Part shown: positions 1,798 to 56,428 of the stretch, piece after piece
Numbering within the stretch: the stretch's first letter is position 1
Layout: each line of letters begins with the position of its first letter
From: Streptomyces sp. ITFR-21
Lineage (GTDB): Bacteria > Actinomycetota > Actinomycetes > Streptomycetales > Streptomycetaceae
Direction: 5' to 3'
Assembly: GCF_031844685.1 (NCBI RefSeq)
Contig: NZ_CP134605.1
Span: 620,001 to 684,000, forward strand
Length of the DNA stretch: 64,000 nt
Notes under the pieces: model-generated
Seen by the model: the letters and a program-made list of their open reading frames with translations, nothing else
Databases searched by the model: none
Told to the model about the DNA's origin: nothing
Translations under genes and position numbers: made by a program

Positions 1798-2605
1798 GCC
1801 GCCGCTTCGCTCCCGGGCCACCTCCTTTTGCCGCCGGTTCGCCTCCGGGCCCACCTCCTTTTGCCGCCGGTTCGCCTCCGGGCGCTTCGGTCCGGTGTCG
1901 ACGGGGCGCCCATAGGTGGGTGCCGTCCAGCGCTACGGCACCGCCCATCCCCCTTTTTTTGCCGCCGGTTCGCCTCCGGGCGCTTCGGTCCGGTGTCGAC
2001 GGGGCGCCCATAGGTGGGTGCCGTCCAGCGCTACGGCACCGCCCATCCCCCTTTTTTTGCCGCCGGTTCGCCTCCGGGCGCTTGGGTCCGGTGTCGACGG
2101 TCGACCGTGCTCACTCGCTCGTACCTCGCTCACTGCGCGCGCTCTCCCTTTCGACACCGGCGCGCCCTTCGGCTCACCGGCTACCCGGCCGAACGTCGGG
2201 CGCCAGGTGGACGTGGGGGCGGACCCTACGGCGCCAGATGGACGCGGGGGCGGACCCTACGGCGTGAGGTGGGCCCGGCGGCCGACCGTACGGCGCCACG
2301 CAGGGCAACCCAGCCCCCGAGCCTGGGCCCCCTTAGGTGCCCTGACGCCCGACGGCACCCGCCAAAGGGGCACCCTCACGCTGCCGGGCACCCGCCCACG
2401 GCACCGATACCGCCTGGGGTTCGCCGGTAGCCGGCGAGCCGAAGGGCGCGCCGGCGTCGAAAGGGACGAGGAGAAGGAAGCGACGAAGGAGCGACCGTAC
2501 GACGAGGACCGTCGACACCGGACCCAAGCGCCCGGAGGCGAGAAGGCGGCAAAAAAGAACTCCCGGAGGCGAGAAGGCGGCAAGCAAGGCCTGGGCGGCC
2601 CCTCT
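1791..2605 (+). repeat. Foldback repeat element, copy A
   Basis: About 800 bp of non-genic repeat between convergent genes. From the left it holds about three 33-bp units beginning TTTTGCCGCCGGTTCGCC (1791-1890). Then come two tandem 98-bp units (1916-2013 and 2014 onward), each ending near GTCGACGGGGCGCC or a variant. A core of about 390 bp follows. The right end (2508-2557) is a reverse-complement copy of the left unit (2051-2101), so the element can fold on itself; the inverted similarity continues inward (TTTCGACACCGGCGCGCC against TTTCGACGCCGGCGCGCC). A 31-bp tandem duplication near 2203-2264 is absent from copy B. Open frames in all phases here are by-products of high GC. No transposase is present. 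Confidence 0.8.
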
Positions 2606-2634: not shown

Positions 2635-4890
2635 TTAGGGGAAGCTCACCAGGTCCGTCACCTGATGACCGTTGTTGACCGCGGCTCCGGTGTTGTTGAT
2701 GACATGGCTGATGGTGCCGGTACCGCCGAGCGAGACGGTCACCATGTCGTGGAACGTGACCCCCGCGTTCTGCGGCACCTCGAAGGAGTGCGCCGCGACC
2801 ACCGCCGGGTTGCTGGAGAAGTAGCAGTAGCTGCCGAGCCCCCACGCCTCATGGCTGGTGACGCTGTCGGCGACCTTGTAGGCGGGGTAGCCCTGCGAGG
2901 AACCGTTCATCCAGGACGCCTGGTTGGGCGGGTCGTAGGGCATCTCGTTCTGGAAGAAGTACGTCCTGCCGCCGTTGCCGTTCCAGATCACCTGGGTCTG
3001 CTGGTAGTGCTCGACGAACAGGCCGTACGCCGTGACGTTCTGGCCGTTGACGATCACCCCGTTGGCCGCGGTGTTGGTGGTCCAGCCGACCGTGCCGCCG
3101 TTGCCGTGGTCGGCCCGCCAGGCCCAGGTGTGGTCGATGACCGTGTTGTTGCTGTTGACGATCAGCGACTGGGTGGCCTTGCCGACGGTGGCGCCGCCGA
3201 TCCGGAAGAAGACGTCGGACAGGCTGGTCGGGTCGGCCGCGTGGTTGGCGGACGAGCCGGCCGGGCCGATCTGCATCAGCGACTGGGAGTTGGTGGTGCC
3301 CGCGTCGATCAGCAGGCCGGCCAGCTTGATGCCGTCCACGTCCGAGGTGCTGATCGCCGTGATGCCGTTGTCCGGCACCAGCGTGGCCAGGCCCAGGCCC
3401 AGCACCACGGTGTCCGGGCGGGTGATGTCCAGCGTCTGGTTGAGGTGGTAGACGCCCGGGGTGACCAGCAGGTTCTTGCCGGCCGCGAGGGCGGCGTTGA
3501 TGGTGGCCGCGGTGTCACCCTGCTTGGCCACGTAGAACTGGCTGATGGGCAGCGACTGCCCGGCCGCGGTCTTGCCGCTCCAGGTGGTGCCGGCCGCGTT
3601 GGACTGCAACGCCGGGACGAACACCTGGTAGTTGCCGCCGCCGTCCACGTACAGGAACGGGTTCTCCCGGTTGACCGGGGCCGAACCGACCGTGGTGTAC
3701 GGCGGGTTGGGGAAGGAGTTGCCCGGGGCACCCTGGTCGCCGACGTAGACCATGTTCCAGTTGGAGCCGCTCCAGGAGCCCATCTGGGTGGTCTTGGTCA
3801 GGAACTGCTGCTGCGAGCCGGACTGGATCTGCCCGTCCACCTTGGTGTCGGAGATGAAGCCGCCACTGGACCAGCCGCCGTCGTCCAGCTGGAGGTTGCC
3901 GCGCACGTGCACCCGGCGGAACGGCGCCGCCTGCGAGACCGCCCAGCGGTCGCTGCCGCCGCTCGGGGTGATCGACAGGTTCTCCGCGTCGCGCCAGAAG
4001 TTCTGGGTGGCGTTGCCCTGGAACCAGTCTGCCTCGGCGTGCACCGCGCCGTTGATGGTCACGTCGTCGGGGTTCAGGCCCAGGCCCGCGACCTCGGTGT
4101 AGAAGCCGACGTTGACGTCCGCGCTGTAGGTGCCGGGCTTGAACAGCACCGCGTAGCGCTGGCTGCCGAACTGGTTGGTCTCCTGCTGGCTGAAGATCGA
4201 GTTCAGCCGGGACTGGACGGTGGCCGCGGGCATCGACGGGTCGAAGACGACCACGTTGGGGCCGAGGTCCGGGTTGCCGCCGGAGGGCGGCGGGGTGGTG
4301 GTGCCGCCCCCGGTGCTGCCGCTGACGTTGAAGGACTGCGCGGCGGTGCCGTTGCAGGTGTACTGCTGGAGCTGGACGCTGTCCGCGGTGGAGGCGGCCG
4401 GCACGTCCAGGCACTTGCCGCTGCTGCGGTTGACGAAGTGGAACGAGCCGGCGGCCTCGGCGACGGGCTGCCACTGCTGGTTGGCGCCGCTGCCGTAGAG
4501 CCACAGCTGGGTGAGGGCGCCGTCGGCGGCGGAGACGTCGGTCTCGTCCCAGACCTGGTTCGGCGCGCCGGCCGCGCCGACCCGGTAGTAGCCGCTGTCG
4601 GTGGCGGTGAACTGCCAGGACTGGGCGGCGGAGCCGTTGCAGGTGTACTGCTGCACGGCGGTCCCGTTGGCGGTGGACGCGGCACGGGCGTCGACGCACT
4701 TGCCGCTGCCCACGTTGGTGACGGTGGCCGGCGCGGTGGGGATGGTGGCGGCGCCCGCGCCCGAGGCGGAGAACAGCGCGATACAGGCGGAAACCGGCAG
4801 CGCCACGGCCGCCACGATGGCGGCGGTGACGCGTCTGCGGTTGCCTGGGGGGCGGATGAGCGTGCCGGACACTGCGGGTACCGGGGTCAC
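2635..4890 (-). CDS. Secreted RICIN-lectin / GH55-type exo-beta-1,3-glucanase
   Basis: A 751-residue exported protein starting at GTG 4890 behind GAGGAGA. Residues 1-48 are a signal peptide ending near SGAGAA. Residues about 55-185 are a ricin-type beta-trefoil (CBM13) with repeated CNGSAAQSW/CNGTAAQSF motifs, followed by a short Gly/Pro/Thr linker. Residues about 200-750 form a double beta-helix region beginning DLGPNVVVFDPSMPAA. From memory this closely resembles the Streptomyces GH55 enzyme SacteLam55A, including FFQNEMPYDPPNQ, which should carry the catalytic Glu. Expected role: release of glucose from beta-1,3-glucan such as fungal wall laminarin. The family is often mis-annotated as a coagulation factor or adenylyl cyclase protein. 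Substrate specificity is inferred. Confidence 0.75.
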   Translation of the reverse strand: MTPVPAVSGTLIRPPGNRRRVTAAIVAAVALPVSACIALFSASGAGAATIPTAPATVTNVGSGKCVDARAASTANGTAVQQYTCNGSAAQSWQFTATDSGYYRVGAAGAPNQVWDETDVSAADGALTQLWLYGSGANQQWQPVAEAAGSFHFVNRSSGKCLDVPAASTADSVQLQQYTCNGTAAQSFNVSGSTGGGTTTPPPSGGNPDLGPNVVVFDPSMPAATVQSRLNSIFSQQETNQFGSQRYAVLFKPGTYSADVNVGFYTEVAGLGLNPDDVTINGAVHAEADWFQGNATQNFWRDAENLSITPSGGSDRWAVSQAAPFRRVHVRGNLQLDDGGWSSGGFISDTKVDGQIQSGSQQQFLTKTTQMGSWSGSNWNMVYVGDQGAPGNSFPNPPYTTVGSAPVNRENPFLYVDGGGNYQVFVPALQSNAAGTTWSGKTAAGQSLPISQFYVAKQGDTAATINAALAAGKNLLVTPGVYHLNQTLDITRPDTVVLGLGLATLVPDNGITAISTSDVDGIKLAGLLIDAGTTNSQSLMQIGPAGSSANHAADPTSLSDVFFRIGGATVGKATQSLIVNSNNTVIDHTWAWRADHGNGGTVGWTTNTAANGVIVNGQNVTAYGLFVEHYQQTQVIWNGNGGRTYFFQNEMPYDPPNQASWMNGSSQGYPAYKVADSVTSHEAWGLGSYCYFSSNPAVVAAHSFEVPQNAGVTFHDMVTVSLGGTGTISHVINNTGAAVNNGHQVTDLVSFP

Positions 4891-4933
4891 ACGTGTCTCC
4901 TCAGTCGCGTTGTGGGGTCGCGATGCGGTCTGG

Positions 4934-4963
4934 ACGCTAGGCGCCGCCCGCCGGAGGAGTCAA
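4934..4963 (-). promoter_or_regulatory. Predicted promoter of the GH55 gene with a GGTCTGGAC half-site
   Basis: On the minus strand TTGACT (4958-4963), an 18-bp spacer and TAGCGT (4934-4939) form a housekeeping-sigma-type promoter about 45 bp before the start codon. GGTCTGGAC at 4927-4935 overlaps the -10 and matches the core of chitinase direct repeats and DasR sites, although its flanks do not. Confidence 0.45.
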
Positions 4964-4999
4964 TACACATCAAAAAATAAGTCGTGAACTATGCATCGG

Positions 5000-5836
5000 T
5001 CAGGCGTCGATGGTGTTGGTCGCGAGCAGCCCGATGACGACGAGGCCGATGACGATCCGGTAGATCACGAAGGAGTTGAAGGAGTGCTTGGCGACGAAGC
5101 GCAGCAGCCAGGCGATGGAGGCGTAGGCGACGACGAAGGACACCAGGGTGCCGACGGCGAGCGCGGGCACGCCGACGCCCCCGCTGGTGGCGTCCTTCAG
5201 CTCGTACAGTCCGGCGCCGGTGAGGGCGGGCAGACCGAGGAAGAACGACAGGCGGGTCGCGGCCATCCGGTCCAGGTCGCGGATCAGGGCGGCGGAGATG
5301 GTGGCACCGGACCGGGAGAAGCCGGGGAAGAGCAGGGCGAGGATCTGCGAGGTGCCGACCACCATCGCGTCGGCGAACGTCACCTGCTCCTCACCGCGCT
5401 TGAAGCGCGCCATCTGTTCGGCGCACCACATGACGACGCTGCCGCCGATGAGGGAGAAGGCGACCACCCACAGCGAGCCGAGCGGCCCGTCGATGAGCGG
5501 CTTGGCGGCCAGGCCGACGACCACGATCGGGATGGTGGCGTAGATCACCCACCAGGTGAACTTGTAGTCGTGGTTGTCACGCTCCCGCTTGTCGGTCAGT
5601 CCGCGCAGCCAGGCGCCGACGAACCGGGTGATGTCCTGGAAGAAGTAGACAAAGACGGCGGCGATGGCGCCCACCTGGATCACCGCGGTGAAGGCGACCA
5701 CCGAGTCGTCCTTGACCGGGATGTTCATCAGTCCCTCGGCCATCTTGAGATGGCCGGTGGAGGAGACCGGCAGGAACTCGGTCACTCCCTCCACGATGCC
5801 GAGAATGACGGCCTGGCCGACGCCGATGGCACTCAT
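5000..5836 (-). CDS. uppP: Undecaprenyl-diphosphate phosphatase UppP (BacA)
   Basis: A 278-residue polytopic membrane protein with both family signatures: EGVTEFLPVSSTGH near the N-terminus (first catalytic loop) and PGFSRSG in the second half. It dephosphorylates undecaprenyl pyrophosphate on the outer face of the membrane, recycling the lipid carrier for peptidoglycan and teichoic acid synthesis, and can raise bacitracin resistance. It starts at ATG 5836 and lies between two secreted glycosidase genes on the same strand, with its own 145-bp upstream gap. Streptomycetes often have more than one copy, so this need not be the sole one. Confidence 0.95.
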   Translation of the reverse strand: MSAIGVGQAVILGIVEGVTEFLPVSSTGHLKMAEGLMNIPVKDDSVVAFTAVIQVGAIAAVFVYFFQDITRFVGAWLRGLTDKRERDNHDYKFTWWVIYATIPIVVVGLAAKPLIDGPLGSLWVVAFSLIGGSVVMWCAEQMARFKRGEEQVTFADAMVVGTSQILALLFPGFSRSGATISAALIRDLDRMAATRLSFFLGLPALTGAGLYELKDATSGGVGVPALAVGTLVSFVVAYASIAWLLRFVAKHSFNSFVIYRIVIGLVVIGLLATNTIDA

Positions 5837-5980
5837 GGGTGGTCCCGTCCCCTGGTCTTCCGATGGAGGAACCGGGCGTGCCCTCGTACGGGCACGCCCG
5901 GTCCACTCCGACTACATTTGTGTAGACGCTCGGTCAGACTCTAGAGGACGCGCGCGGCGCCCGCTAAGCCGGGGCGGTCG

Positions 5981-7762
5981 TCAGGCGATCGAGAAGTCGT
6001 CGCCGTAGACCGCGCCCTGGCCGTACCAGCCGTGCAGGTAGACCGTCACCGTACCGGTGGAGCCGGTGGTGAAGGGCACCGTGAGCTTGGTCCAGGAGCT
6101 GCCCGAGGCCCAGGTGCTGGCGGTGGCGCCGCCGGAGACGCCGGCGTACGCGTAAGGGCCCTGCACCCAGGCGGTCAGCGTATAGGAGTGGTTCGCCTGG
6201 AGCGCCACCGACTGGTCGCACTCCCCGGTCTGCGAGGAGGAGGGCACCACGTGCAGCGCGTGGCTGCCGGCGTGCGCCGGGCTGGCGACCACGCCGCCGC
6301 CGGGCTGGCAGGTCCACGGCGTCAGGCTGCCGGTCTCGAAGCCGCCGTTCACCACGCTCCCGCTCGGATTGCCGGTCCCGCCGGTGACGGTCAGCGCGTA
6401 CGTCGCCGCGTGGGATCCGGAGCCCGCCGAACCGTTCACCGAGAGGCTGTACGTGCCGGGGGCCGCGGCCGAGGTGGTGGTGACCGACAGGGTGGCGGTG
6501 CCGCCCGCGGTGACCGAGCCGGGGCTGACCGAGGCGGTGACGCCCGCCGGGGCGCCGCTCACCGACAGGGCCACCGACTGGGCGGAGCCGGCGGCGACGG
6601 CGGTGTGCACGGTGGAGGTGGCGGAGCCGCCGGGCGCGACCGACCCGGAGGACGGGGACAGCGACACCGAGAAGTCGTTGGCCGGCGGGGGCGTGGTGGT
6701 GCCACCGCTGAACGGTTCGAAGATGTGGCTGAACTGCCAGGTGGTCTGCGGGGTGCCGGAGCAGGAGTCGGAGCCCCCGGTGCCGTTGCAGTTGCCGTTG
6801 TCCCGTTGCAGGGCCCAGAAGGAGAGGGTGTTGACGCCCTTGCTGACCGCCCAGTTGTAGACGGTGGTGGCGTTGGCGGTGGTGAAGGTCTCGGCGGGCC
6901 CGTAGTCGTCGATACCGGGCATCTCGATGATGCCGGTCATACCCCACAGCTGGGCGTCGGTCTTCGACGGGTAGAGCTGGGCCAGCTGGTTGTGCAGCCC
7001 GGTGATCGCGGTCTGGGTGTCGGTCGCCATGTCGTGCGTGGCGCCGTCGTAGTAGTCGAACGTCATGAGGTTCACGACGTTGAGGTTGACGCCGTTGGAC
7101 ACCGCGTTCTGCAGCACCGCCAGACCGCTGCCGGAGCCGACCGAGCCGCTGGTCAGGCCACTGGTGGTGGTCGGCAGGGTGTAGGAGAACTGCAGCGGGC
7201 GGCCGTTGGCGGCCGCCCAGTCCTGGACGATCTTGACCGCCTTGTTGCGGCGGTCGATGCCGGCCGCGTTGGTCAGCGAGTTGTCCTCGATGTCCAGGTC
7301 GATCCGGCTGATGTCGTAGGTGGTGACGACGCTCTCGTACGCGGCGGCTATGGAGTTGACGTTGGTGCAGCTGTCCGCGATCTCGGTACCGCTGTTGTCG
7401 GCCGCGTAACCGCCGAAGGACGGGATGACGTCGCCGCCGCCGGCCTGGATGGTGTCGATGTCGGCGCCGAAGTGGGACTGGCTGATGGACAGCGAGGTGT
7501 CGCCGTTCCAGTACGGCGTGCAGGAGCCGACGGACGGGGTCTGGACGAAGGCCATCGTCAGGTACTTGTTGCCCGAGGCGGTGGCCAGCCCGGACAGGCT
7601 GTCGCCGTTGTACGCCTCGAAGTAGGGGGCGAAGACGTGGGCGGGCAGTGCGGTGGCCGCCTGGGCGGCGCCGGCGCCGGTGAGGGCGAGGCCGGCCGCC
7701 GCGGCGACCGTGGCGAGGCCGGTGATCAAGGCGCGGATGGGTCTGCGAACGGGTCCGGTCAT
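5981..7762 (-). CDS. Secreted GH18 chitinase with Ig-like and carbohydrate-binding modules
   Basis: 593 residues from ATG 7762, chosen because GAAGGGAG precedes it and a signal peptide ([12 protein letters not shown] to GAAQA) follows at once; a longer frame to 7828 would read through the operator. Residues about 35-345 are a GH18 barrel with the catalytic DLDIED motif (DxDxE) plus LMTFDYYDG and [10 protein letters not shown]. After a Thr/Pro linker, about 365-470 is an Ig-like beta domain. About 475-593 is a lectin-like module beginning [14 protein letters not shown], like CBM4/16-type binding domains. It should hydrolyse chitin outside the cell. It is probably controlled through the direct repeats just upstream. 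Confidence 0.88.
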
Positions 7763-7796
7763 GGACCGCGCTCCCTTCGACATGGGGGGACGCATT

Positions 7797-7839
7797 TTGG
7801 TCTGGACCAATATGTTGGTCTGTACCACCCAACTGTCAA
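7797..7839 (-). promoter_or_regulatory. Chitinase-type direct-repeat operator and promoter
   Basis: TTGGTCTGGACCAA (7797-7810) and TTGGTCTGTACCAC (7815-7828) lie 18 bp apart, just before the GH18 gene. Streptomyces chitinase promoters are known to carry 12-bp direct repeats of the type TGGTCCAGACCT, and DasR sites share the GGTCTAGACC core. On the minus strand TTGACA at 7834-7839 is a good -35, placing the repeats over the -10 region, as expected for repression. Confidence 0.75.
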
Positions 7840-7995
7840 GAGCCCTTACAGATAATCGGGTTGGCCGCCGCGCGGGGGGTGCCCCCGGTCGTAGCCCGTC
7901 GTTCCGGCGCCGCCCGGCCGCGGTCGCCGCCGCGCCGGGAAGGGCGCGGCGGGGAGGGGTGGGCGCGGTGAGACCCGTCGCGGGGCCCGGCCCGC

Positions 7996-9399
7996 TCAGC
8001 GCGGCCGGGCCGCCGCCGCGAGCGCCGGTACGAACCGGGCGGCGTCCGGCGTGCCGACGCCGGTGGCCAGGTCGTAGCCGCGCACCGCGGTGTAGCCGGG
8101 CACGCCGTCATAGGTGGTGTCGGTGCCGTCGTCGACGTCCACGATCCCGGTGGACCCGACATCCCCCTCGGCCAGCGCGTACAGCGCGGTGTGGATGTCG
8201 CCCAGCCGGCGGCCGGCGAACTGGTCGGCCAGCGCGACGATGCCGGCGAAGAGCGGGCTGGACTCGCTGGTACCGCCGTAGACCTCCCAGCCGGCGGCGG
8301 TCGGGTCGTAGCTGGAGTACACCCACGCGCCGCCGTCGACGGCCGCGCTCATCGAGATGTCCGGGGTGCCCCGGCGGTCGCCGACGACGTTGCGCACCCC
8401 GTCCTGGTACGCGGGGCGGGGGAAGACGTTCGACCGGCCGCCGCCGCCCGCCCCGTAGTCGTTGTACACGCTGTCCGGCGCGGTGCGGTCGCCCTCGGCG
8501 TCCAGGTGCAGCCGGGTGCCGCCGACCGAGGTGACCAGCGGGTCGGCGGACGGCCAGGAGTTCACCGGGTACGGGTAGTCGGTGCGGCCGTCCTCGGCCG
8601 CGTCGGTGGCCCCGCCGTCCCCGGAGGAGGCCAGGACCGTCACCCCGCGCCGCCGCGCGTCCTCGAAGGCGTACCGCAGCCGCCGGATGCTGGAGAAGTC
8701 CCCCTGCCCGAAGCCGGGGAAGGTGTTCTCGGTGGCCCCGAAGCTCTGCGTGACGACATCGCCGACACCGTGGTCGATCAGGTACTTCTCGGCGTCCATC
8801 ATCTCCGGCAGCCCGGTGACACCCTCGGTCTCGGCGACGCCGGTCTCCACCAGCACGATGCGGGCGCCGGGCGCGACGGCGTGCGCCATCTCCACGTCCA
8901 GCGTGCTCTCCCCGGCCCAGCTGGTGTGGTCGTTGTCGGCCGGGTCGAAGGCCGGCACGTCGCCCCACTTGACCACCTGCACCGTGGTACTGGGCAGGCC
9001 GAACTGCTTGCTGTACACGTCCAGGTCGTGCTGGATCGTCGGCGAGCCGAACGAGTCCACGACCACGACGGTCCGGCCCCTGCCGGTGATCCCGGCCCGG
9101 TACAGCGGGTCCAGGCCGTACGCCCGGCGGTACTGCAGGGGCGTGTAGCAGCTGATGCCCCAGGTCGCCCGGCACTGCTCGTCGCTCAGCGGTTCGTCGG
9201 CGCCCTTGACGAGCCGGTGTCCGGCGACGGCCGGCACCGGCCGGACCGCGGGCCCGGCGGCGGCAGGCGCGGGGGCCGCGGGGGTGGCGGCGGCGGTGGC
9301 GGTCCCGGTGAACGGGGCGGCGATCAGGGCGGCGGCGGTCAGGGCCGCGGCCCCGGCCGCCGCGGTCACGGCGCATGGCCGCGGACGAGGTGTGCGCAT
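7996..9399 (-). CDS. Secreted S53 (sedolisin) serine-carboxyl peptidase lacking a large prodomain
   Basis: 467 residues from ATG 9399, which has AAGGAG about 5 bases upstream and a signal peptide (residues 1-36). Sedolisin residues are visible: ESTLD (catalytic Glu and Asp four apart), GTSESSP (nucleophile Ser) and [10 protein letters not shown] (C-terminal calcium-site Asp). The catalytic fold starts at about residue 75 ([15 protein letters not shown]), so the usual 150-200-residue Pro-kumamolisin domain is missing. Only a short segment with two Cys precedes the enzyme. It should degrade proteins outside the cell at acidic pH. It sits with glycosidases on the same strand but with a separate upstream region. 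Confidence 0.9.
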
Positions 9400-9464
9400 G
9401 GACTCTCCTTGGGTGGGGAGCACTCCTCCCGCGGACTGCGACCGCGCGGAGCAGCTGACCGGAT

Positions 9465-9480
9465 CACATCGACAGATGTG
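9465..9480. repeat. Short inverted repeat upstream of the S53 peptidase
   Basis: CACATC-GACA-GATGTG forms a 6-bp palindrome 66 bp before the start codon. The position suits an operator, but no regulator is identified. Confidence 0.3.
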
Positions 9481-9581
9481 CCCGGGGGAGAGGCGTACGT
9501 CGTCCACCGCCGCGTGCCGTACCCGATCGGCCGATCCGCTGCTGTTTCGTGGTCATGACATGACGACGGGCCGGGAGCTCC

Positions 9582-10471
9582 TCAGGACACGATGTCCTTG
9601 GTGCGGAAGCCGCGGAAGGCGAGCGCGGTGAGCACCACCGCGTACGAGACCGAGACCGAGGCGCCCTGGACCATCCCGGTCCACTCCACGGTCGGCTGGA
9701 TGGCGTCCAGCCAGGAGAACTGCCAGTGCGCGGGCAGCACGTCGCGCCACGAACCGAGCGCGGTCACCGCGTCCAGCACGTTGCCGACGATGGTCAGCCC
9801 GACCGCGCCACCGACCGCGCCCAGCGGTGCGTCGGTGATGGTGGACAGCCAGAACGCCAGCGCCGCGGTGACCAGCTGGCCGACGAAGACATACGCCACC
9901 GCGACCGCCAGCCGGGGCAGCGCGCCGCCCGATCCCAGCGCCCCGCCGGCCGGCAGTTCCAGATCGCCCCAGCCGTACGCCACGGTGCCGGCCGCCAGCG
10001 CCACGGCCGGCAGCAGCACCAGGGCGACCGCGCTGAAGCCGAGCGCCACGGTCAGCTTGACCGCCAGCAGCCGGGCCCGCGGCACCGGCGCCGCCAGCAG
10101 GTAACGCAGGCTGGACCAGCCGGCCTCCGAGGCCACGGTGTCCCCGCAGAACAGCGCCACCGGCACCACCAGGACGAAGCCCGCCGAGACGAACAGGCAG
10201 GTGGCGGCGAAGTTAACGCCCGAGGCGGTGGCGGTGTCGATCAGTGTCGGGCCGGCCGCGCCGCTGTCGTGCGGGGTGCCGCCGATCGCGAAGGCCGCCA
10301 TCAGGATGAACGGCAGCGCGGCGAGCAGTACGCCGACGATGATCGTGCGGCGCCTGCGCAGCTGGCGGCGGGCCTCCACGCGCAGCCGCAGGGTGCGGCC
10401 GGGCCGGTAGCCGGGCGCGGTGGCGGCGGGCGGCGCGGCGGGGCCGGGCGCGGGTACGGGGGTGGCGGCGC

Positions 10472-10475
<4 letters not shown>
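9582..10475 (-). CDS. ABC-2 type transporter permease
   Basis: 297 residues with a Pro/Ala-rich cytoplasmic N-terminus, a basic segment (RRQLRRRRT) and about six predicted membrane helices (residues about 45-65, 90-115, 145-170, 195-215, 225-245 and 270-288). The start overlaps the stop of the upstream ATPase gene by ATGA (10472-10475), so the two are coupled and should form one exporter. The permease resembles the YhgE/ABC-2 group. No substrate can be inferred; the unusual partner suggests a link between extracellular hydrolysis and export. Confidence 0.82.
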
Positions 10476-13246
<2,771 letters not shown>

Positions 13247-13850
13247 CCCCCGATCCTAGGGTCTGCCGTGGGGATCCGCGGGGGTGGCGGAGCGTGGTGC
13301 GGTGCGGCCGCCCGGCGGATGAGGGAACCGGCATGGTACGTCGCCGACCGGCGGGAAGGCGGCGGACGTGCGGGCCGGGGCTCACGACGCCGCCCGGATC
13401 CGCCCGACGACCGACCCTGGACGCCGGGCGGCACGGGGTGGCGGGGGGTCGGCGTTTCCCCGGCTTTTCCCGGGCGCCGGGCGCGGGTCCGCGATCGGCG
13501 GCGGACACCGGTTCCGGACTTTCCCCGGGGCATCCGTCGAGCCGCTCGACAGGCGCGATGACGGGGGGCGTATCGGCCGTCAGGGAAACGGCCGCGGCGC
13601 GGTTCGGCGGTTGTTCGCCGGTGTGTTCGGCGCGATGTCCGCCGGGCGGCTTACGGCGAGATGACGGGGCCCGTACGCGTCCGGGACGAGCCCCTCCGGG
13701 GGTGTTCCGGCCGGCCAGCGGTGCGTTCGCGCCGACCGCGCCGACCACACCGGACGCGGTCGCCGGCAACTGGGCGGCGGGCAGCGCGCGGCGGACAGCG
13801 GAATGCGGGACACGGCCGGGTCGTCGGTGCCCGGCGGTAGAGTCCACGGC
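13247..13850. other. Divergent intergenic region without a convincing gene
   Basis: About 600 bp of GC-rich DNA between two divergent, apparently leaderless genes. Its edges hold TAGGAT (minus strand, 13253-13258) and TAGAGT (plus strand, 13838-13843). The open frames inside are Arg/Gly/Pro-rich in every phase and have no recognisable family. Confidence 0.5.
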
Positions 13851-14507
13851 GTGGCGAAGGCGCTCTCGGCAGCTCAGCGCAAGGCGGTGACCGGTTCGGA
13901 GCCGGGCACCGGCCGGTTGTCGGCGCGCCCCGAGGTCTGTACGGCGCTGGTGGCGGCGGGACTCGCGGTGCCGCACGGGCGCGGCGGCCACCACGCGTAC
14001 TACCTCAGCTCCGAAGGACGGCGGCTGCGGGCCGAGTTGGCGGCCACCCGGGCGGGCTCCGCCGCGGGCGTGGAACCGGCACCGGCCGCGGCACCGGCGC
14101 GCGGCGGCTTCACGGCGGACGACGGCACCGGCGGGGCGCCACCGGGCGGTGCGGCGCGGCGGGCGGCGGAGGTCGCGACGGCCTGGGAGGGACTGCGGCA
14201 GATCCGGGCGGTGCTGCTCGACGGCGTGACGGACGTACCGGCGCCCTGGGAGCGCGAACGGCCGGTGCACGCCGTGGCGTTGGCGCTGGAGGCGGCGGGC
14301 TGCCCGCCGGCCCGGCCGGACACGGCGGGCTACCGGGTGACCCCCGCGGTCGAGCCCGGCATGGCCGAGGTCACCTGGTCCGCGCCCGGCCCGGCGCCGG
14401 CGGCGCTCGCCACGTGCGCGTCCCTGCTGGGCTCCTGCGGCTGGCAGTGCACCCAGCACCGCACCCGCGAAGGACGCCCCTTCCTCGTCGCCTCCCCCCG
14501 GCGCTGA
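13851..14507 (+). CDS. Conserved hypothetical protein, possible winged-helix N-terminus
   Basis: 218 residues from GTG 13851, chosen over the ATG at 13803 because TAGAGT (13838-13843) ends seven bases upstream, the spacing of a leaderless streptomycete transcript. The N-terminal 60 residues (ALVAAGLAVPHG, YYLSSEGRRLR) look like the end of a winged helix. A variable Ala/Gly-rich linker follows. The C-terminal half (about 100-218) is a compact alpha/beta domain with a pair of Cys near GSCGWQCTQH. I do not recognise a catalytic motif. Related hypothetical proteins occur in streptomycetes, to my memory. It is monocistronic. Confidence 0.65.
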   Translation: MAKALSAAQRKAVTGSEPGTGRLSARPEVCTALVAAGLAVPHGRGGHHAYYLSSEGRRLRAELAATRAGSAAGVEPAPAAAPARGGFTADDGTGGAPPGGAARRAAEVATAWEGLRQIRAVLLDGVTDVPAPWERERPVHAVALALEAAGCPPARPDTAGYRVTPAVEPGMAEVTWSAPGPAPAALATCASLLGSCGWQCTQHRTREGRPFLVASPRR

Positions 14508-14521
14508 CGCCGCTCGCACCC

Positions 14522-14590
14522 CGCGCCGCACCGGCCACCCGCACCGGCCACCCGCACCGGCCACCCGGCCCGGCCACCCGGCCCGCCTAC
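14522..14590. repeat. Short GC-rich tandem repeats
   Basis: Several near-identical copies of CGCACCGGCCACC or CCCGGCCACC lie in tandem just after the hypothetical gene. They give open frames in both directions and are most likely replication-slippage repeats. Confidence 0.5.
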
Positions 14591-14771
14591 CGGCCCGCGC
14601 CCGCGGCCACCGCGGATCCCGAACACCCCGCCGTCCGCCGCAGGTCGGCCCGCCGGCCTCGCCGGCTTCCGTCCCTGGTACGGGTGGTGGACCGGCCCGG
14701 TGGCCCGGAACACGATGACCGTCTTACGTCTCGGATATTGCGAAGAATTATCGCTGTTTTGCACAGACTCA

Positions 14772-14800
14772 TGGACTTACTGCGACCGCGCTCGTAGTCT
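14772..14800 (+). promoter_or_regulatory. Predicted promoter of the GH87-type gene
   Basis: TGGACT (14772-14777), a 17-bp spacer and TAGTCT (14795-14800) fit the housekeeping-sigma consensus. They lie in an unusually A/T-rich patch (14715-14800) about 60 bp before the chosen start codon. Confidence 0.45.
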
Positions 14801-14861
14801 CTCCACGCCCGGCCGGGTGCTCCCCCCTTCCCCTCACCCCCGACCGCAAGGACGTGTGCCT

Positions 14862-17774
14862 GTGTCGCACTCACCTCGCAGTGATGCCCTCAGCGATGCC
14901 AGAAGTCTCCGTTCGCACCGCCATACCAGGCGGCGCGGTTTCGCCGCCATCGTGTCCTTCGCCGTCGCCGCGGCGGCAGCGCTGACCGCTGTGACGCTGG
15001 CGGGCGCCCCCACCGCCAGCGCCGCCGGGGTGCCCGCGCCCTCGCCGATCGGCATTTCGGGCCGCGGCGCCAACGTGCCGTTCACCGAGCTGGAGGCGGA
15101 GTACGCCAATACCAACGGCACGCTGATCGGACCGGACCGGCTCTACGGCCACCTGCCCTCCGAGGCGTCCGGCCGACAGGCCGTCACCCTCGACGCGGTC
15201 GGCCAGTACGTCGAGTTCACGCTGACCAAGCCGGCCAACGCGGTGTCGCTGCGCTACAGCCTGCCGGACACCGCCGACGGCAAGGGCCGCGACGCCACCC
15301 TGGGCGTGCTGGCCAACGGCACCTCGGTCAAGACGCTGCCGGTCACCTCGCGGTACAGCTGGTACTACGGCGGCTACCCGTTCAACAACAACCCGGGTGA
15401 CACCAACCCGCACCACTTCTACGACGAGGCGCGGACCCAGCTCGGCAGCACCTACCCGGCGGGCACCAAGATCCGCTTCCAGGTGACCTCGACCGCGCAG
15501 TCCCCGACCTTCACCATCGACCTGGCCGACTTCGAGCAGGTGGGCTCGGCGATCGCGCAGCCCGCCGGATCGATCAACGCTGTCACCGACTACGGGGTGG
15601 ACCCGACCGGTGCCACCGACTCCACCGCCAAGCTGCAGGCGGCGGTCAACGCGGGCCAGGCGCAGGGCAAGGTCGTATACGTTCCACAGGGCATCTACAC
15701 CCTGTACAGCCACGTGATCGTGGACGGAGTGACCGTCCAGGGCGCGGGCCCCTGGTACACGGTCTTCGGCGGTCGCGACCCGGTGAACCGGTCCAACGCG
15801 GCGGGCTTCTACGGCAAGTACGTCGGCCAGGGCGGCCCCAGCCAGAACGTCCAGCTCAAGGACTTCGCGATCATCGGTGACATCACCGAGCGCAACGACA
15901 ACGACCAGGTCAACGGTATCGGCGGCGCGCTGTCGAACTCGACCGTGGACGACCTGTGGATCCAGCACGTCAAGGTCGGCGCCTGGATGGACGGTCCGAT
16001 GGACCACTTCACCATCAAGAACAGCCGCATCCTGGACACCACGGCCGACGGTGTGAACTTCCACATCGGCGTGACCAACTCGACGGTGACCAACACGTTC
16101 GTCCGCAACGTCGGAGACGACGGTCTGGCCTCGTGGCCGGAGAACCAGCCGAACGTGAACGACAGCTTCGACCACAACACCGTCGTGCTGCCGATCCTGG
16201 CGAACAACATCGTCACGTACGGTGGCAAGGACTTCAACATCTCCGACAACGTGATGGCCGACACCATCACCAACGGCGGCGGCCTGCACATCGCCAACCG
16301 CTACCCCGGCGTCAGCGCCGGCCAGGGCACCGCGGTCGCGGGCACCATCACCGCCGCCCGCAACACCCTGATCCGGGCCGGCAACAGTGACTTCAACTGG
16401 CAGTTCGGCGTCGGCGCCATCTGGTTCGACGGGCTCCAGGGCCAGGTCAACGCCAACATCCAGATCAGCGACACGGACATCCTCGACAGCTCCTACGAGG
16501 CGATCCAGTCGATCGAGACCGGTGTCACCGGCGTCACGATGAAGAACGTCAACATCGACGGCGCGGGCACCTACGCCATCCAGGCGCAGGCCGCGGCGAA
16601 CATGACCTTCATCAACGTCAAGGCCAAGAACATCGGCCAGGCGGCCACCCCGATCCACAACTGCGTCGGCACCTCCCTGCAGATCACCGACGGCGGCGGC
16701 AACTCCGGCTGGAACGTGGGCCAGACCTGCACCGGCACCTGGCCGACGCCGATCTGGACCAACGGCGGCGTGCCCACCGGCGGCAGCGGCGGCACGACCG
16801 GTGGCGGCACCACCACGCCTCCCACCACTCCCCCGACCACTCCCCCGACCACCCCCCCGACGACGCCTCCGACCACGCCGGCCAGTGGCAACCTGGCACA
16901 GGGTCGTCCGGCTTCGGCGTCGTCGTCGGTGCAGAACTACGCCGCGGGCAACGCGGTGGACGGCAACGCCGCCACCTACTGGGAGTCCGACGGCAACGCC
17001 TTCCCGCAGACACTGACCGTCGACCTCGGGTCCACCCAGCCCATCGGCAAGGTCACCCTCAAACTCCCGCCGTCCACCGACTGGGCCACCCGCACCGAAA
17101 CACTCGGCGTCCTCGGCTCCACCGACAACAACACCTGGGCCACCCTCAAAGCCTCCGGCGGCGTCACCTTCAACCCCGCCTCCGGCAACACCGCCACACT
17201 GACCTTCACCACCGCCAACGCCCGCTACGTACGCCTCAACATCACCGCCAACACCGGCTGGACCGCAGCCCAGCTCTCCGAGTTCGAGGTCTACGCGGCC
17301 ACCGGCGGCTCCACCACTCCTCCCCCCACCACTCCTCCCCCCACCACCCCGCCCCCCGGCAACCCGAACCTGGCACAGGGCCACCCGGCGAGCGACACCG
17401 GCCACTCCGACGTCTACACCGCGTCGAACGCCGTGGACGGCAACGCCGCCACGTACTGGGAGAGCACCAACAACGCCTTCCCACAGTCGCTGACCGTCGA
17501 CCTCGGCTCCGCCAAGACCGTCGGCCGGCTGGTGCTGAAGCTGCCCGCCGGCTGGGGCACCCGCACCGAGACGCTCAGCGTCCTCGGCTCGACCGACAAC
17601 AGCACCTACAGCACACTGAAGGCGTCGGCCGGTTACACCTTCGACCCGAGCAGCGGTGACAGCGTCACCGTCACGCTGACCCCGGCCTCCGCCCGGTACC
17701 TCCGGCTCACCTTCACCGGGAACACCGGATGGCCCGCCGGCCAGCTGTCCGAACTGGAGGCGTACGCCTCCTGA
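14862..17774 (+). CDS. Secreted GH87-type alpha-1,3-glucanase / mycodextranase with two F5/8C domains
   Basis: 970 residues from GTG 14862, which has AAGGA nine bases upstream; longer frames to 14700 read through the promoter. Residues 1-53 are a signal with twin-arginine character (TRRRGFAAI, then a hydrophobic stretch). About 60-220 are a CBM-like beta-sandwich containing RYSWYYGGYPFN. About 225-590 are a right-handed beta-helix with TTADGVNFH and VGDDGLASW, the positions where GH87 enzymes carry catalytic Asp residues. Thr/Pro linkers separate two C-terminal discoidin (F5/8 type C) modules that are clearly related to each other. It should cleave alpha-1,3 or alpha-1,3/1,4-glucan of fungal walls. 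The precise linkage is inferred. Confidence 0.78.
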   Translation: MSHSPRSDALSDARSLRSHRHTRRRGFAAIVSFAVAAAAALTAVTLAGAPTASAAGVPAPSPIGISGRGANVPFTELEAEYANTNGTLIGPDRLYGHLPSEASGRQAVTLDAVGQYVEFTLTKPANAVSLRYSLPDTADGKGRDATLGVLANGTSVKTLPVTSRYSWYYGGYPFNNNPGDTNPHHFYDEARTQLGSTYPAGTKIRFQVTSTAQSPTFTIDLADFEQVGSAIAQPAGSINAVTDYGVDPTGATDSTAKLQAAVNAGQAQGKVVYVPQGIYTLYSHVIVDGVTVQGAGPWYTVFGGRDPVNRSNAAGFYGKYVGQGGPSQNVQLKDFAIIGDITERNDNDQVNGIGGALSNSTVDDLWIQHVKVGAWMDGPMDHFTIKNSRILDTTADGVNFHIGVTNSTVTNTFVRNVGDDGLASWPENQPNVNDSFDHNTVVLPILANNIVTYGGKDFNISDNVMADTITNGGGLHIANRYPGVSAGQGTAVAGTITAARNTLIRAGNSDFNWQFGVGAIWFDGLQGQVNANIQISDTDILDSSYEAIQSIETGVTGVTMKNVNIDGAGTYAIQAQAAANMTFINVKAKNIGQAATPIHNCVGTSLQITDGGGNSGWNVGQTCTGTWPTPIWTNGGVPTGGSGGTTGGGTTTPPTTPPTTPPTTPPTTPPTTPASGNLAQGRPASASSSVQNYAAGNAVDGNAATYWESDGNAFPQTLTVDLGSTQPIGKVTLKLPPSTDWATRTETLGVLGSTDNNTWATLKASGGVTFNPASGNTATLTFTTANARYVRLNITANTGWTAAQLSEFEVYAATGGSTTPPPTTPPPTTPPPGNPNLAQGHPASDTGHSDVYTASNAVDGNAATYWESTNNAFPQSLTVDLGSAKTVGRLVLKLPAGWGTRTETLSVLGSTDNSTYSTLKASAGYTFDPSSGDSVTVTLTPASARYLRLTFTGNTGWPAGQLSELEAYAS

Positions 17775-19547: not shown

Positions 19548-19664
19548 AGTCCGCAGCGCCCCCGCTACGGTGCCGGAGGCGCCGCGGCGGCCCACGACGA
19601 GGACGCCAGCCCACCGCCTCGCGACCCGGGGAGCCCCTCCCCCGGACGAAGCGGCGGGGAGCAC

Positions 19665-19705
19665 CGCACGGCGCCGCCCGCCCTCCGGGCGGGCGGCGCC
19701 GTGCG
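19665..19705. terminator. Bidirectional hairpin terminator
   Basis: A perfect 19-bp GC-rich stem (19665-19683 with 19687-19705) and a 3-nt loop lie between the convergent PAP2 and muralytic genes. There is no T run, which is common for actinobacterial terminators. Confidence 0.7.
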
Positions 19706-19716
19706 ACGGACAGGCC

Positions 19717-20919: not shown

Positions 20920-20995
20920 GGCAGCAGTCCTCTCCGGTGGCCGGCCGCGCCAAAGATAGGCCCCCGCCGACCCCGCCACAAGAGCGCCCGCAACC

Positions 20996-21612: not shown

Positions 21613-21639
21613 CCCGGGCCCCCCGGCGTTGAAGGTGGG

Positions 21640-22653: not shown

Positions 22654-22662
22654 GGTCGCCTG

Positions 22663-23508: not shown

Positions 23509-23671
23509 CGGCTCGCCGGCGGGCGGGGCGGCGGCCCGCCGCGGCCGGGCGGGCGTGATGACGGGCCGTCGGGTCCCGGGGGTTCCGCCGTCACCCGGAG
23601 GCGGGCGGCCCTCATCCGGATGGGCCCCGCCGCCGTGCCGGGTGTGCGGGGACGTTCCTAACGTGAGCGGC

Positions 23672-53406: not shown

Positions 53407-54648
53407 TCAGCAGGCGCCCTCGTCCTGCCACACGCCCCACTGCCCGGTGGTGCCGGGCTCCTCGTTGGTGGTCCACCACTTGGCCAGCCACTTGTGGCCG
53501 TTGTGGGCGACCTCGTTGCCGCCGACGTAGACCGCGGAGGCGGTCCACTGGGTGAGCGTGCCGCAGTTGCCGCCGGGCGGGGTGGTCGGCGGCTCGGTGG
53601 TCGGCGGCGTCGTGACCGGCGGGGTGGCGCCGGCGAACCGCACGCTGTACTTGGCGAAGTCCCAGGCGCCCTGGGCGACGCTGCTGCACGTACCGGAGGT
53701 GGTGCCGTTGTCCGGCGGGTTGCACTGCCGGTCGCGGTTGAGCGACCAGAAGGTGAAGCGGCCCATCCCGTGGCTGGTCGCGTAGTCCAGCACGGTCTGG
53801 AAGTCGGCCTGGTAGAAGTACTCGCCGGAGTCGCTGCGGCCGTTCATCCCGGAGAAGCCCTCGTGGGCGTACGCGGTCGCGGTGTCCCAGCCGAAGGTAG
53901 TCTTGAGCAGGCCGTTGAACGCGGTGAGCGCGCTGGTCTGGGAGGCGGCGCCGTTGAAGCCGCCGTCGAAGGGCATGATGGAGAAGTTGTTGGGCGTGAA
54001 GCCCTGCGACTTGGCCTCGTTGAGCATCTGCTGCCCGAACCAGCCGGTGCCGGCCGCGGTGCCGGCGGTGGTGACCGAGATGTAGATGCCGGGGTTGTTC
54101 TGCTGGAGGATCTTGGCCGCGCCGATCTCGTGCGCGACCGCGGCGGTGTTCTCGTACTCCGGCTCCTCCAGGTCGAAGTCGATCGCCTTGAGCTGGTACT
54201 TGTTGACCACCTGCTGGTACGCCGCGGCCGTCGAGGCCGCGTCGGAGCACGCCTGGCCCAGCTTGGTGCCGCCGTAGCCGCCGATGGAGACGGACACGTC
54301 GCCGCCCTTGGCCCGGATCGCGGAGATCACGCCGCCCACCGCGGTGTCGGAGGACACCGCGCCGGTACCGCCCCAGGTGGGGCTACAGCCGCCGCCGTTG
54401 GGCGCGAGGATGAAGGCGAGCTGGAAGGCCTTCAGCCCGGTGGCGTCCATGATCTGGCCGGCGTCCGGCGGGTTGTTGTCCAGCGGCATCAGGTAGGGCG
54501 CGGCGGCGTACCAGCTGCTGCTCAGCGCGTTCGCCGCCGTCGTGGCACCGCTGGCCTGCCCGGCGCCGAGCGCCTGGACCGTGCCGAGTCCCGCGACGGC
54601 GAGCACGGCGGCGGCGACACCCGTCCCGAGCGCTTTGAGTCGTCTCAC
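53407..54648 (-). CDS. Secreted GH18 chitinase with CBM5/12
   Basis: 413 residues from GTG 54648; the frame to 54705 would run into the regulatory region. A signal peptide covers residues 1-36 (ending SGATTA). About 42-330 are a GH18 barrel with IDFDLEEPEY (the DxDxE motif), VSIGGYGG and FTFWSLNRDRQC. A Pro/Thr linker (TTPPTTEPPTTPP) leads to a C-terminal CBM5/12 chitin-binding module (WTASAVYVGGNEVAHNG, then WWTTNEEPG). The domain order resembles secreted endochitinases of Streptomyces. The operator upstream holds an exact copy of the known TGGTCCAGACCT repeat. Confidence 0.92.
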   Translation of the reverse strand: MRRLKALGTGVAAAVLAVAGLGTVQALGAGQASGATTAANALSSSWYAAAPYLMPLDNNPPDAGQIMDATGLKAFQLAFILAPNGGGCSPTWGGTGAVSSDTAVGGVISAIRAKGGDVSVSIGGYGGTKLGQACSDAASTAAAYQQVVNKYQLKAIDFDLEEPEYENTAAVAHEIGAAKILQQNNPGIYISVTTAGTAAGTGWFGQQMLNEAKSQGFTPNNFSIMPFDGGFNGAASQTSALTAFNGLLKTTFGWDTATAYAHEGFSGMNGRSDSGEYFYQADFQTVLDYATSHGMGRFTFWSLNRDRQCNPPDNGTTSGTCSSVAQGAWDFAKYSVRFAGATPPVTTPPTTEPPTTPPGGNCGTLTQWTASAVYVGGNEVAHNGHKWLAKWWTTNEEPGTTGQWGVWQDEGAC

Positions 54649-54715
54649 GTCGGACCTCTTCGTTGTAGGGGGAGGGAGCAGCAGAATCCTGCCCATGGCG
54701 TGCACCCGTCAATGA

Positions 54716-54760
54716 TTTGGTCCAGACCTTTAGAGCAATCCACAAATTGGTCTCTACCAC
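54716..54760 (-). promoter_or_regulatory. Chitinase-type direct repeats upstream of the second chitinase
   Basis: TTTGGTCCAGACCTT (54716-54730) contains TGGTCCAGACCT, the 12-bp repeat described for Streptomyces chitinase promoters. A second related copy, TTGGTCTCTACCAC, is at 54747-54760. They lie 70-110 bases before the start codon in A/T-richer DNA. Confidence 0.78.
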
Positions 54761-54876: not shown

Positions 54877-56271
54877 TCAGACGACGCCCACCGAGGCGAG
54901 GGCGCGGCGCTGGGCCGGGGACGGCTTGGCGGGGAAGTAGAGGTAGCAGATCCCGCCGGTACCGCTGGAGACGCCGCCGGAGGCGTTGATCCGCTTGGTC
55001 CGCAGCCAGACGGTCTCGAACTGCGCCCGCCGGTAGACGTTGCGGACCGCGGCGTCGTCGGCGCTCGCCGGGTCGTTGGCCACCACGTCGCCGTCGGCCG
55101 TGAAGCCGACGACGCACATCAGGTGCCCCGACGTGCCGTACCCCGCGCCGTCCAGCTCGCTCGCCAGGAAGGACTGGGAGGTGATCACCGGGATGCCGGC
55201 CCTGGTCAGCCGCTCGACCTCGTTCAGCGAGCGCAGCCGGGTGACCACGCCCTGCAGGTCCGGGTAGGTGGCCGCGTAGGCGGCGTTGAAGGGCCAGTTG
55301 CCGCAGCCCTCGTACTGGTAGTCGTACGTGTGGCGGGCGGCCTGGTCGACCTGCGGGTCGGCGTAGGCGGGGTCCACCCAGGCCAGGTCGGCCGCGGACG
55401 GCCCGCGGCCCCAGTACTCGACGACCATGGTGGACGAGGTGGGGCTGCACCACGCCTCGCCGCCGTTGTCGTACTGCGGGTACTCGCCCTTGTGGATCTC
55501 CTGCGAGTAGCGTGGCACCGGCAGTTCGGTCCCGGCACCGGCGCCCGGCACCGAGGCGGGCACCGTGTAGCGGTCGGGGATGTCGGAGGCCATCGCGCCC
55601 AGCCGCCACACCGTCGGGGTGAGCCGGCTGCCGGGCCGGCGCAGCAGCGTCAGCCGCAGCCGGTACGAGGCGAGCAGCGGGCCGGCGCCCGCGTCGTCGA
55701 CGGCGAAGGTGTCGGTCCCGATACTGCTCCGGCCGTCGCTCTGGCCGTCGACCGAGGTGCGGCGGATGTCCTGCGGTCCGTCGCCCGCTGTCCAGCGGCC
55801 CATGACGTAGGCGGGGGTCGCGGTGCCGTCGGTGTACGTGCCGAGCAGCTCGACCTGGATCCAGGTGCCGGCCGGGGTGTCCGCGTTCCAGGAGGCGATC
55901 AGCTCGCTCGCGGGCCGCGGCACCCGGCGCGCCGGGGAGGTCCAGATCGCGGTCTCCCAGGTCGCCGTGGTGCCGGTGTGCGGGTCGGCGTAGTCGAAAG
56001 TGCCGGTCGCGCGGGCGATCCGCACACCGGGCCGCCGGCCGGGCACCGGGAGGGTGCCCTGGTGCGTGCCGAACAGCCAGTCGGGGTACGACGTCCAGCC
56101 GTGGTAGTCGACGGGGGCGGGGTCGGGCACGGGCCCGCCCGGGTGCCGCGGCCCGGGGGCGGCGGCGCCGGCGGGCGCGGGGGCGGCGTCCGCCGTGGAC
56201 GCGGTGGCGGCGGCGGCGGCCACCGCGATGGCGGCGGTGAGTACGGTACGCCGGGGCGCGTTGTCGGTCAT
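54877..56271 (-). CDS. Secreted C39-like cysteine peptidase
   Basis: 464 residues from ATG 56271. The N-terminus has a double Arg and hydrophobic stretch (PRRTVLTAAIAVAAAA), a possible Tat or Sec signal. The first half is a beta-rich domain (about 55-250). About 260-440 are a peptidase_C39-type papain fold: catalytic Cys in GGEAWCSPTSST, His in SGHLMCVVGF and Asp in VVANDPAS. The family cleaves peptides or Gly-Gly leaders when linked to transporters; none is nearby, so an extracellular peptidase or amidase role is more likely. A dre-like site lies 142 bp upstream. Confidence 0.82.
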   Translation of the reverse strand: MTDNAPRRTVLTAAIAVAAAAATASTADAAPAPAGAAAPGPRHPGGPVPDPAPVDYHGWTSYPDWLFGTHQGTLPVPGRRPGVRIARATGTFDYADPHTGTTATWETAIWTSPARRVPRPASELIASWNADTPAGTWIQVELLGTYTDGTATPAYVMGRWTAGDGPQDIRRTSVDGQSDGRSSIGTDTFAVDDAGAGPLLASYRLRLTLLRRPGSRLTPTVWRLGAMASDIPDRYTVPASVPGAGAGTELPVPRYSQEIHKGEYPQYDNGGEAWCSPTSSTMVVEYWGRGPSAADLAWVDPAYADPQVDQAARHTYDYQYEGCGNWPFNAAYAATYPDLQGVVTRLRSLNEVERLTRAGIPVITSQSFLASELDGAGYGTSGHLMCVVGFTADGDVVANDPASADDAAVRNVYRRAQFETVWLRTKRINASGGVSSGTGGICYLYFPAKPSPAQRRALASVGVV

Positions 56272-56412: not shown

Positions 56413-56428
56413 ACTGGTCTCGACCATT
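56413..56428. promoter_or_regulatory. DasR-like operator (dre)
   Basis: ACTGGTCTCGACCATT matches the dre consensus ACTGGTCTAGACCATT at 15 of 16 bases by eye. It lies upstream of the C39-like peptidase gene (start 56271) and only six bases past the stop of the Xaa-Pro peptidase gene. Confidence 0.7.

What the first reader, a model, noticed from the sequence alone, without database searches (positions are those of the whole stretch)
2635..17774. Mycolytic gene set: three glycan types plus protein in 15 kb
GH55 (beta-1,3-glucan), GH18 (chitin), GH87-type (alpha-1,3-glucan) and S53 protease genes cluster here, matching the main layers of a fungal wall. A second chitinase and a C39-like peptidase appear at 53-56 kb.
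Basis: partly seen in the sequence, partly recalled or inferred. Interest (0 to 1): 0.6.

Follow-up and report, generated by a model that had tools for sequence, protein, structure and literature searches.

The report
Fungal-wall enzyme locus, swappable glucanase module
A soil streptomycete-type bacterium carries side by side the genes for enzymes that cut chitin, beta-1,3-glucan, alpha-1,3-glucan and protein, most likely to digest fungal cell walls; the enzyme families are ordinary, but the locus is conserved in related species and the working half of its beta-glucanase has been exchanged in place more than once.

Summary
Within 2635-17774 lie a CBM13-GH55 beta-1,3-glucanase, a GH18 chitinase, an S53 serine-carboxyl protease and a GH87 alpha-1,3-glucanase, each matched to a solved structure and keeping the catalytic residues I could map. 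One gene of each family within 15 kb is unlikely by chance (4.5e-5 under uniform placement, a post hoc test).

The core GH55-GH18-S53-ABC permease-CocE/ABC is conserved in 11 Actinacidiphila-type genomes. GH87 is absent in four and UppP in two. Elsewhere, relatives of this GH55 clade recurrently sit beside other GH18 genes, in several genomes as a tight GH18-CBM13 / CBM13-GH55 tandem. That supports a real chitinase-glucanase link.

One operator for the whole set is not supported. Only GH18 genes carry DasR/chitinase-type boxes (two at 7798-7827). GH55 has its own 31-bp element, invariant in 10 of 11 genomes, and GH87 a third.

The least expected result: the GH55 catalytic module was exchanged at this locus at least twice while promoter, signal peptide and CBM13 stayed (AU test p = 5e-84 for window + DvalAA-14).

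Overall: a new member of a known kind (an actinobacterial fungal-wall CAZyme cluster). Enzyme activity and co-induction were not tested.

The parts
2635..4890 (-). CBM13-GH55 exo-beta-1,3-glucanase gene (signal peptide, ricin-type CBM13 about 4330-4725, GH55 catalytic module 2635-4278)
   Evidence: phmmer 4pew/SacteLam55A 2e-214; RicinB_lectin_2 7e-27; active-site residues kept
4278..4330 (-). linker between CBM13 and GH55: boundary at which the catalytic module differs between species (type A / type B)
   Evidence: window vs DvalAA-14 DNA identity drops from 85-92% to about 71-79% here; trees and AU test
4958..4988 (-). 31-bp conserved element upstream of GH55 (TTCACGACTTATTTTTTGATGTGTATTGACT), includes a -35-like TTGACT; invariant in 10 of 11 genomes
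   Evidence: upstream alignment; scan of 4.06 Mb of held sequence
5000..5836 (-). UppP undecaprenyl-diphosphate phosphatase; lies between GH18 and GH55, absent there in two of 11 genomes
   Evidence: NF001392 above cut-off; absent in L275 and L278
5981..7828 (-). GH18 chitinase with Ig-like and CBM4_9-type C-terminus (true start probably 7762)
   Evidence: PF00704 above cut-off; 9buf, 2dsk; start
7798..7827 (-). two DasR/chitinase-type boxes (TGGTCCAGACCA 7798-7809, TGGTACAGACCA 7816-7827) just upstream of the probable GH18 start
   Evidence: both boxes, some with substitutions, aligned across 11 genomes
7996..9507 (-). secreted S53 serine-carboxyl protease, kumamolisin/sedolisin type (true start probably 9399)
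   Evidence: phmmer 1sio 3e-30; Pfam Peptidase_S8 4e-7
9582..10475 (-). ABC-2 type permease, conserved neighbour
   Evidence: PF12730/PF12679; 80-89% in relatives
10472..13246 (-). CocE/S15-like hydrolase fused to an ABC ATPase, overlapping the permease gene; conserved neighbour
   Evidence: Peptidase_S15 and ABC_tran, TIGR00976 and drrA-like
13803..14507 (+). small conserved hypothetical protein between CocE/ABC and GH87
   Evidence: no Pfam or NCBIfam match; 54-81% in block relatives
14735..14784 (+). 50-bp conserved element upstream of GH87, unlike those of GH55 and GH18
14700..17774 (+). GH87 alpha-1,3-glucanase with two F5/8 type C (CBM32-like) domains (true start probably 14862)
   Evidence: CatAgl_D1/D2 and F5_F8_type_C; 7c7d 3e-121
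53407..54705 (-). second GH18 chitinase with CBM5/12
   Evidence: 9buf 1e-41 and chitin-binding chains; CBM_5_12
54718..54759 (-). two DasR/chitinase-type boxes upstream of the second chitinase
54877..56271 (-). C39-like peptidase; a similar box at 56415-56426 lies 144 bp upstream
   Evidence: PF13529 1e-26

Best explanation
This is a conserved Actinacidiphila locus for secreted digestion of fungal cell walls, built up in steps around a chitinase (GH18) and an exo-beta-1,3-glucanase (CBM13-GH55), with a neighbouring acid-type S53 protease and, in some lineages, a GH87 alpha-1,3-glucanase. Inferred action: GH18 and GH55 open the chitin/beta-1,3-glucan core, GH87 removes the alpha-1,3-glucan of the outer wall, and S53 cuts wall or released protein. 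The genes are probably independent transcription units: GH18 under DasR-type chitin control (inferred from its boxes), GH55 and GH87 under their own conserved elements. Shown: families, mapped catalytic residues, synteny, distinct upstream elements, and in-place exchange of the GH55 catalytic module while promoter and CBM13 stayed. Inferred: substrate, induction, co-operation.
For: Families and catalytic residues. Core synteny in 11 genomes. Recurrent GH18 neighbours of the same GH55 clade in other contexts, including 34-50 bp tandems and an independently composed GH55-GH18-S53 neighbourhood with a different S53 subfamily (L281). Eleven random 20-kb regions held none of the four families. Chance simulation. 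DasR-type boxes upstream of GH18 genes only, save one GH18/S53 intergenic site in L281 and one CocE-like gene in L170. Published precedent: S. lavendulae induces chitinases and glucanases on yeast (PMC13170338); a GH87 enzyme hydrolyses Aspergillus wall (PMC10696023).
Against: No expression or activity data. No operator shared by the four genes. GH87 missing from the block in four genomes; S53 relatives elsewhere stand alone. Outside the block I saw no GH18 or S53 near GH87 orthologues, and GH55 in only two loci. UppP, the ABC genes and the CocE-like hydrolase have no evident wall-degrading role.
Confidence: 0.68

Rival explanations
1. Conserved neighbourhood without joint function: four ordinary secreted hydrolases that came to lie together in the ancestor of these species and were kept by descent, each serving its own substrate.
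For: Different upstream elements for GH18, GH55 and GH87; GH87 and UppP come and go; S53 relatives stand alone elsewhere; the 11 genomes are close relatives, so their synteny is one event, not eleven.
Against: GH18-GH55 adjacency recurs in other arrangements with other GH18 subfamilies in other genera and another family; chance placement is unlikely.
Confidence: 0.2
2. General scavenging of soil polysaccharides (insect or crustacean chitin, plant callose or algal laminarin, bacterial mutan), not fungus-directed.
For: Each enzyme family has such substrates; the DasR-type boxes answer to GlcNAc whatever the source of chitin (PMC6097792); related streptomycetes use mutan (PMC11475409, abstract).
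Against: The combination of chitin, beta-1,3-glucan and alpha-1,3-glucan activities fits fungal walls better than any of these single sources (inference).
Confidence: 0.12

Closest known systems
SacteLam55A, GH55 exo-beta-1,3-glucanase of Streptomyces sp. SirexAA-E (PDB 4pew)
   Same: full-length match of the catalytic module and all mapped catalytic, subsite -1 and aromatic-block residues
   Different: window protein has an N-terminal CBM13; Tyr194 of the long-chain cleft is not conserved
GH87 alpha-1,3-glucanases (PDB 7c7d; Agl-FH1 5zru)
   Same: CatAgl D1/D2 domains and catalytic Asp spacing
   Different: C-terminal pair of F5/8-C domains in the window protein; activity not measured
Streptomyces DasR/chitinase-promoter regulon
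   Same: repeated TGGTNNAGACCA boxes in chitinase promoters of this genome
   Different: boxes are absent from the GH55 and GH87 upstream regions examined
Yeast-lytic CAZyme response of Streptomyces lavendulae YAKB-15 (PMC13170338)
   Same: secreted chitinases and beta-glucanases against a fungal wall
   Different: there an expression response that also includes mannosidases; I did not check whether those genes are clustered or homologous to these

Membership tests
GH55 | two-beta-helix catalytic domain homologous to SacteLam55A over full length | tested here: met
   phmmer 2e-214, residues 205-751
GH55 | general acid Glu502/Tyr505 and proton-relay residues | tested here: met
   E502, Y505, T149, Q174, S198, E480 equivalents present in types A and B
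GH55 | beta-1,3-glucanase activity | not testable with these tools
   needs enzyme assay
GH18 | PF00704 above curated cut-off and DxDxE motif | tested here: met
   38 bits vs 29.6; motif in alignment to 9buf
GH87 | CatAgl D1 and D2 domains above cut-off | tested here: met
   169.7 and 65.6 bits vs 27
GH87 | three catalytic Asp (D1045, D1068, D1069 of Agl-FH1) | tested here: met
   D-x22-DD pattern in the alignment to 7c7d; residues named in part in PMC10696023 and otherwise from memory
S53 (sedolisin) peptidases | homology to kumamolisin/sedolisin with Glu..Asp, Asp and GTS-Ser motifs | tested here: met
   1sio 3e-30, motifs read from the alignment
DasR regulon | dre box (A(G/C)TGGTCTAGACCA(G/C)T, PMC6097792) upstream of the gene | tested here: inconclusive
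   imperfect dre-like boxes upstream of GH18, second chitinase and C39 gene; none upstream of GH55 or GH87; binding not tested
Single co-regulated polysaccharide-utilisation cluster | shared operator or operon across the set | tested here: not met
   three different conserved upstream elements; GH87 on the opposite strand
Single co-regulated polysaccharide-utilisation cluster | co-induction by the substrate | not testable with these tools
   no expression data

The most novel reading that the evidence does not exclude
The locus works as a fixed platform for a replaceable glucanase: an almost invariant promoter element, signal peptide and CBM13 are kept while the GH55 catalytic module is exchanged between two diverged subfamilies (type A and type B, 60-65% identical), possibly tuning the enzyme to different prey walls. 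Copies of a dispersed repeat just downstream of GH55 in three genomes could serve as recombination partners.
Probability: 0.3. Interest if true: 0.55.

Novelty: new member of a known kind. Interest (0 to 1): 0.42.

Why it matters
It gives a compact, natural enzyme set for testing whether bacteria clear fungal walls by combining chitinase, beta- and alpha-1,3-glucanase and protease. Its two natural alleles of the same glucanase gene let one ask directly what exchanging only the catalytic module does to substrate range. No paper describing this locus turned up in the library searched; only open-licence papers are held, so this is weak evidence of absence.

Tried and rejected
GH18-GH55 fusion protein: long open frames of about 1200 aa in L288 and L290 suggested one, but the GH18 reading frame differs and both genes have their own ends, so they are two tandem or overlapping genes. 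Longest-ORF extraction of query proteins picked wrong frames in this G+C-rich DNA and was replaced by exact match coordinates. A single shared operator for all four genes: not found. Lineage divergence as the cause of the type A/B difference: rejected by neighbour identity, DNA breakpoint and AU test. Repeat-flanked mobile island: both flanking repeats belong to a dispersed family and the block is conserved in relatives where I found little or no repeat.

Full report
Check of the observation. The GH55 gene (2635-4890, minus) is missed by Pfam except for its ricin-type CBM13, but residues 205-751 align end to end with the Streptomyces exo-beta-1,3-glucanase SacteLam55A (E 2e-214). The residues listed in PMC10637969 are present: T149, F152, Q174, W196, S198, W444, W446, D449, E480, H481, E502 and Y505; Y194 is not. 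GH18, S53 (Pfam names it the related S8 family) and GH87 are equally clear. The second chitinase and the C39-like peptidase at 53-56 kb are also real.

Is it more than chance? The genome (7.36 Mb) holds 5 GH55 genes, 8 GH87-like matches counted as 7 genes, 9 GH18-model matches plus the second chitinase, and 4 S53 matches. In 200,000 uniform placements, one of each within 15.2 kb arose with frequency 4.5e-5. The families were chosen after seeing them, and chromosome arms may be enriched, so this is a guide only.

Conservation of the block. For DvalAA-14 the sequence begins within S53, so the ABC and CocE genes were not seen next to it. GH87 between the hypothetical gene and the aldo/keto reductase is present in the window, DvalAA-14 (separate contig), A. 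paucisporea, A. cocklensis, A. alni, G019 and G021. It is absent in G016, G018, G020 and G024, where the hypothetical gene is followed directly by the reductase. UppP is absent in G016 and G024. The window's GH87 is 91% identical to that of A. cocklensis.

Neighbours of GH55 elsewhere. A 64-row GH55 tree has a clade of 36 rows that includes the window. From, my tally is 23 of those 36 rows with a GH18 gene within about 6 kb, against none in the other 28. In three Streptomyces genomes and G023 the arrangement is a GH18-CBM13 gene followed at 34-50 bp by a CBM13-GH55 gene on the same strand (L161, L162, L164, L281); in another family of the order the two genes abut or overlap (L259, L285, L288-L291). 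L281 also carries an S53 gene of a different subfamily. L235, L237 and L159 show other orders. Eleven random 20-kb regions contained none of the four families. Rows are related, so counts are not independent events.

GH87 and S53 elsewhere. Of the 80 GH87 loci fetched, the block loci aside, none showed GH18 or S53 by the window queries within the flank held (up to 10 kb); the S53 query of that call carried a frame error, so for S53 this is weak. GH55 was seen in two: L123 (Micromonospora mirobrigensis, GH87 at 10001 and GH55 at 18278, about 6.6 kb apart) and L089 (a GH55 match at the locus edge, within 10 kb). Separately, L251 has a GH55 (9183-10799) 1.6 kb from a GH87-like gene of another type (12393-13793), and the own genome has a GH18 beside a GH87-like gene at 578-584 kb (L168). 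S53 relatives at 63-75% stand alone in five genomes.

Regulation. Chitinase-type direct repeats, the DasR boxes of PMC6097792, lie at 7798-7809 and 7816-7827 just upstream of the probable GH18 start, before the second chitinase (54718-54759), and once upstream of the C39 gene (56415). In the sampled loci such boxes were upstream of 14 of 35 GH18 matches, 0 of 71 GH55, 0 of 14 GH87 and 1 of 24 S53, the last an intergenic site shared with GH18 in L281. Duplicate genomes and overlapping loci are included in these counts. The window's own GH18 is not counted there because the query included the boxes. Alignment of upstream regions shows a 31-bp element before GH55, identical in 10 genomes and with 2 mismatches in G020, and found nowhere else in 4.06 Mb of held sequence. 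GH87 has a different conserved 50-bp element. The set is therefore not one regulon by shared operator.

Module exchange. DvalAA-14 is the window's sister in a tree of neighbouring genes (100/100), with 84-93% identity in GH18, S53, UppP and gfo, yet its GH55 catalytic module is 65% identical to the window's; the CBM13 is 88%. Window, A. paucisporea, A. cocklensis, G019 and G021 carry type A. DvalAA-14, A. alni, G016, G018, G020 and G024 carry type B, whose nearest relatives are GH55 genes of another family of the order. DNA identity between window and DvalAA-14 falls at the CBM13-GH55 linker. Holding window and DvalAA-14 together in the GH55 tree is rejected at p = 5e-84, and A. alni with its type A neighbours at p = 3e-39. 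The two well-supported conflicts require at least two exchanges; my parsimony count on the neighbour tree gives three, some of its branches being weaker. Both types keep the mapped catalytic residues, so both are probably active.

Flanking repeats. Two copies of a repeat lie in inverted orientation at 1810-2470 and 21052-21597 (93-97%). The family has tens of matches in this genome (91 matched pieces) and shorter matches in the 12 other same-genus genomes searched, none in the eight more distant ones. Pieces also lie between GH55 and gfo, or just downstream of GH55, in A. alni and G020.

Mechanism and verdict. The best reading is a locus for digesting fungal walls whose core is the GH18-GH55 pair, with S53 and GH87 as additions. 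Published work shows Streptomyces inducing chitinases and glucanases against yeast (PMC13170338) and a GH87 enzyme attacking Aspergillus walls (PMC10696023). That these particular genes do so here is inferred. The families are known and the cluster type is known, so I file it as a new member of a known kind. The exchange of the glucanase catalytic module under a fixed promoter is the part a specialist may not expect.

Noticed in passing
window 1810-2470 (+) and 21052-21597 (-): Two copies of a dispersed G+C-rich intergenic repeat, partly palindromic, bracket the gene set in inverted orientation at 93-97% identity; the family occurs in all 13 same-genus genomes searched, strongest in this one.
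   Followed up: partly
window 10472-13246: CocE/S15-like hydrolase with signal-like N-terminus fused to an ABC ATPase, overlapping an ABC-2 permease gene; conserved in the block relatives and also seen in other streptomycetes.
   Followed up: no
window 42-1684 and L166 15200-18723: Next to GH55 on the other side lie a sugar isomerase-like gene and a Gfo/Idh oxidoreductase (kept beside GH55 in most block genomes); further left is a probable ROK regulator, read from sequence only.
   Followed up: no
L168 7111-13126 (own genome about 578-584 kb): A GH18-CBM13 gene directly beside a GH87-like gene, about 40 kb left of the block: a second chitinase/alpha-glucanase-type pairing.
   Followed up: partly
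L251 9183-13793: In G019 a GH55 gene lies 1.6 kb from a GH87-like gene of another type.
   Followed up: no
L123 10001-18278 and L089 3-11620: A GH55 gene within roughly 7-10 kb of a GH87 gene in Micromonospora mirobrigensis and Streptomyces sp. CB01635, outside the block.
   Followed up: no
L205 5845-11923 and L206 9373-16412: A different GH55 clade sits 3-5 kb from another S53 subfamily in two Streptomyces genomes.
   Followed up: no
L164 8713-10200: GH55 of Streptomyces sp. PH10-H1 is split over reading frames (decayed gene or sequencing error).
   Followed up: no
window 18843-24946: PAP2-type phosphatase, transglycosylase/LysM/M23 protein and a D-Ala-D-Ala carboxypeptidase near the block suggest peptidoglycan work close by; they are conserved with it in several relatives.
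   Followed up: no
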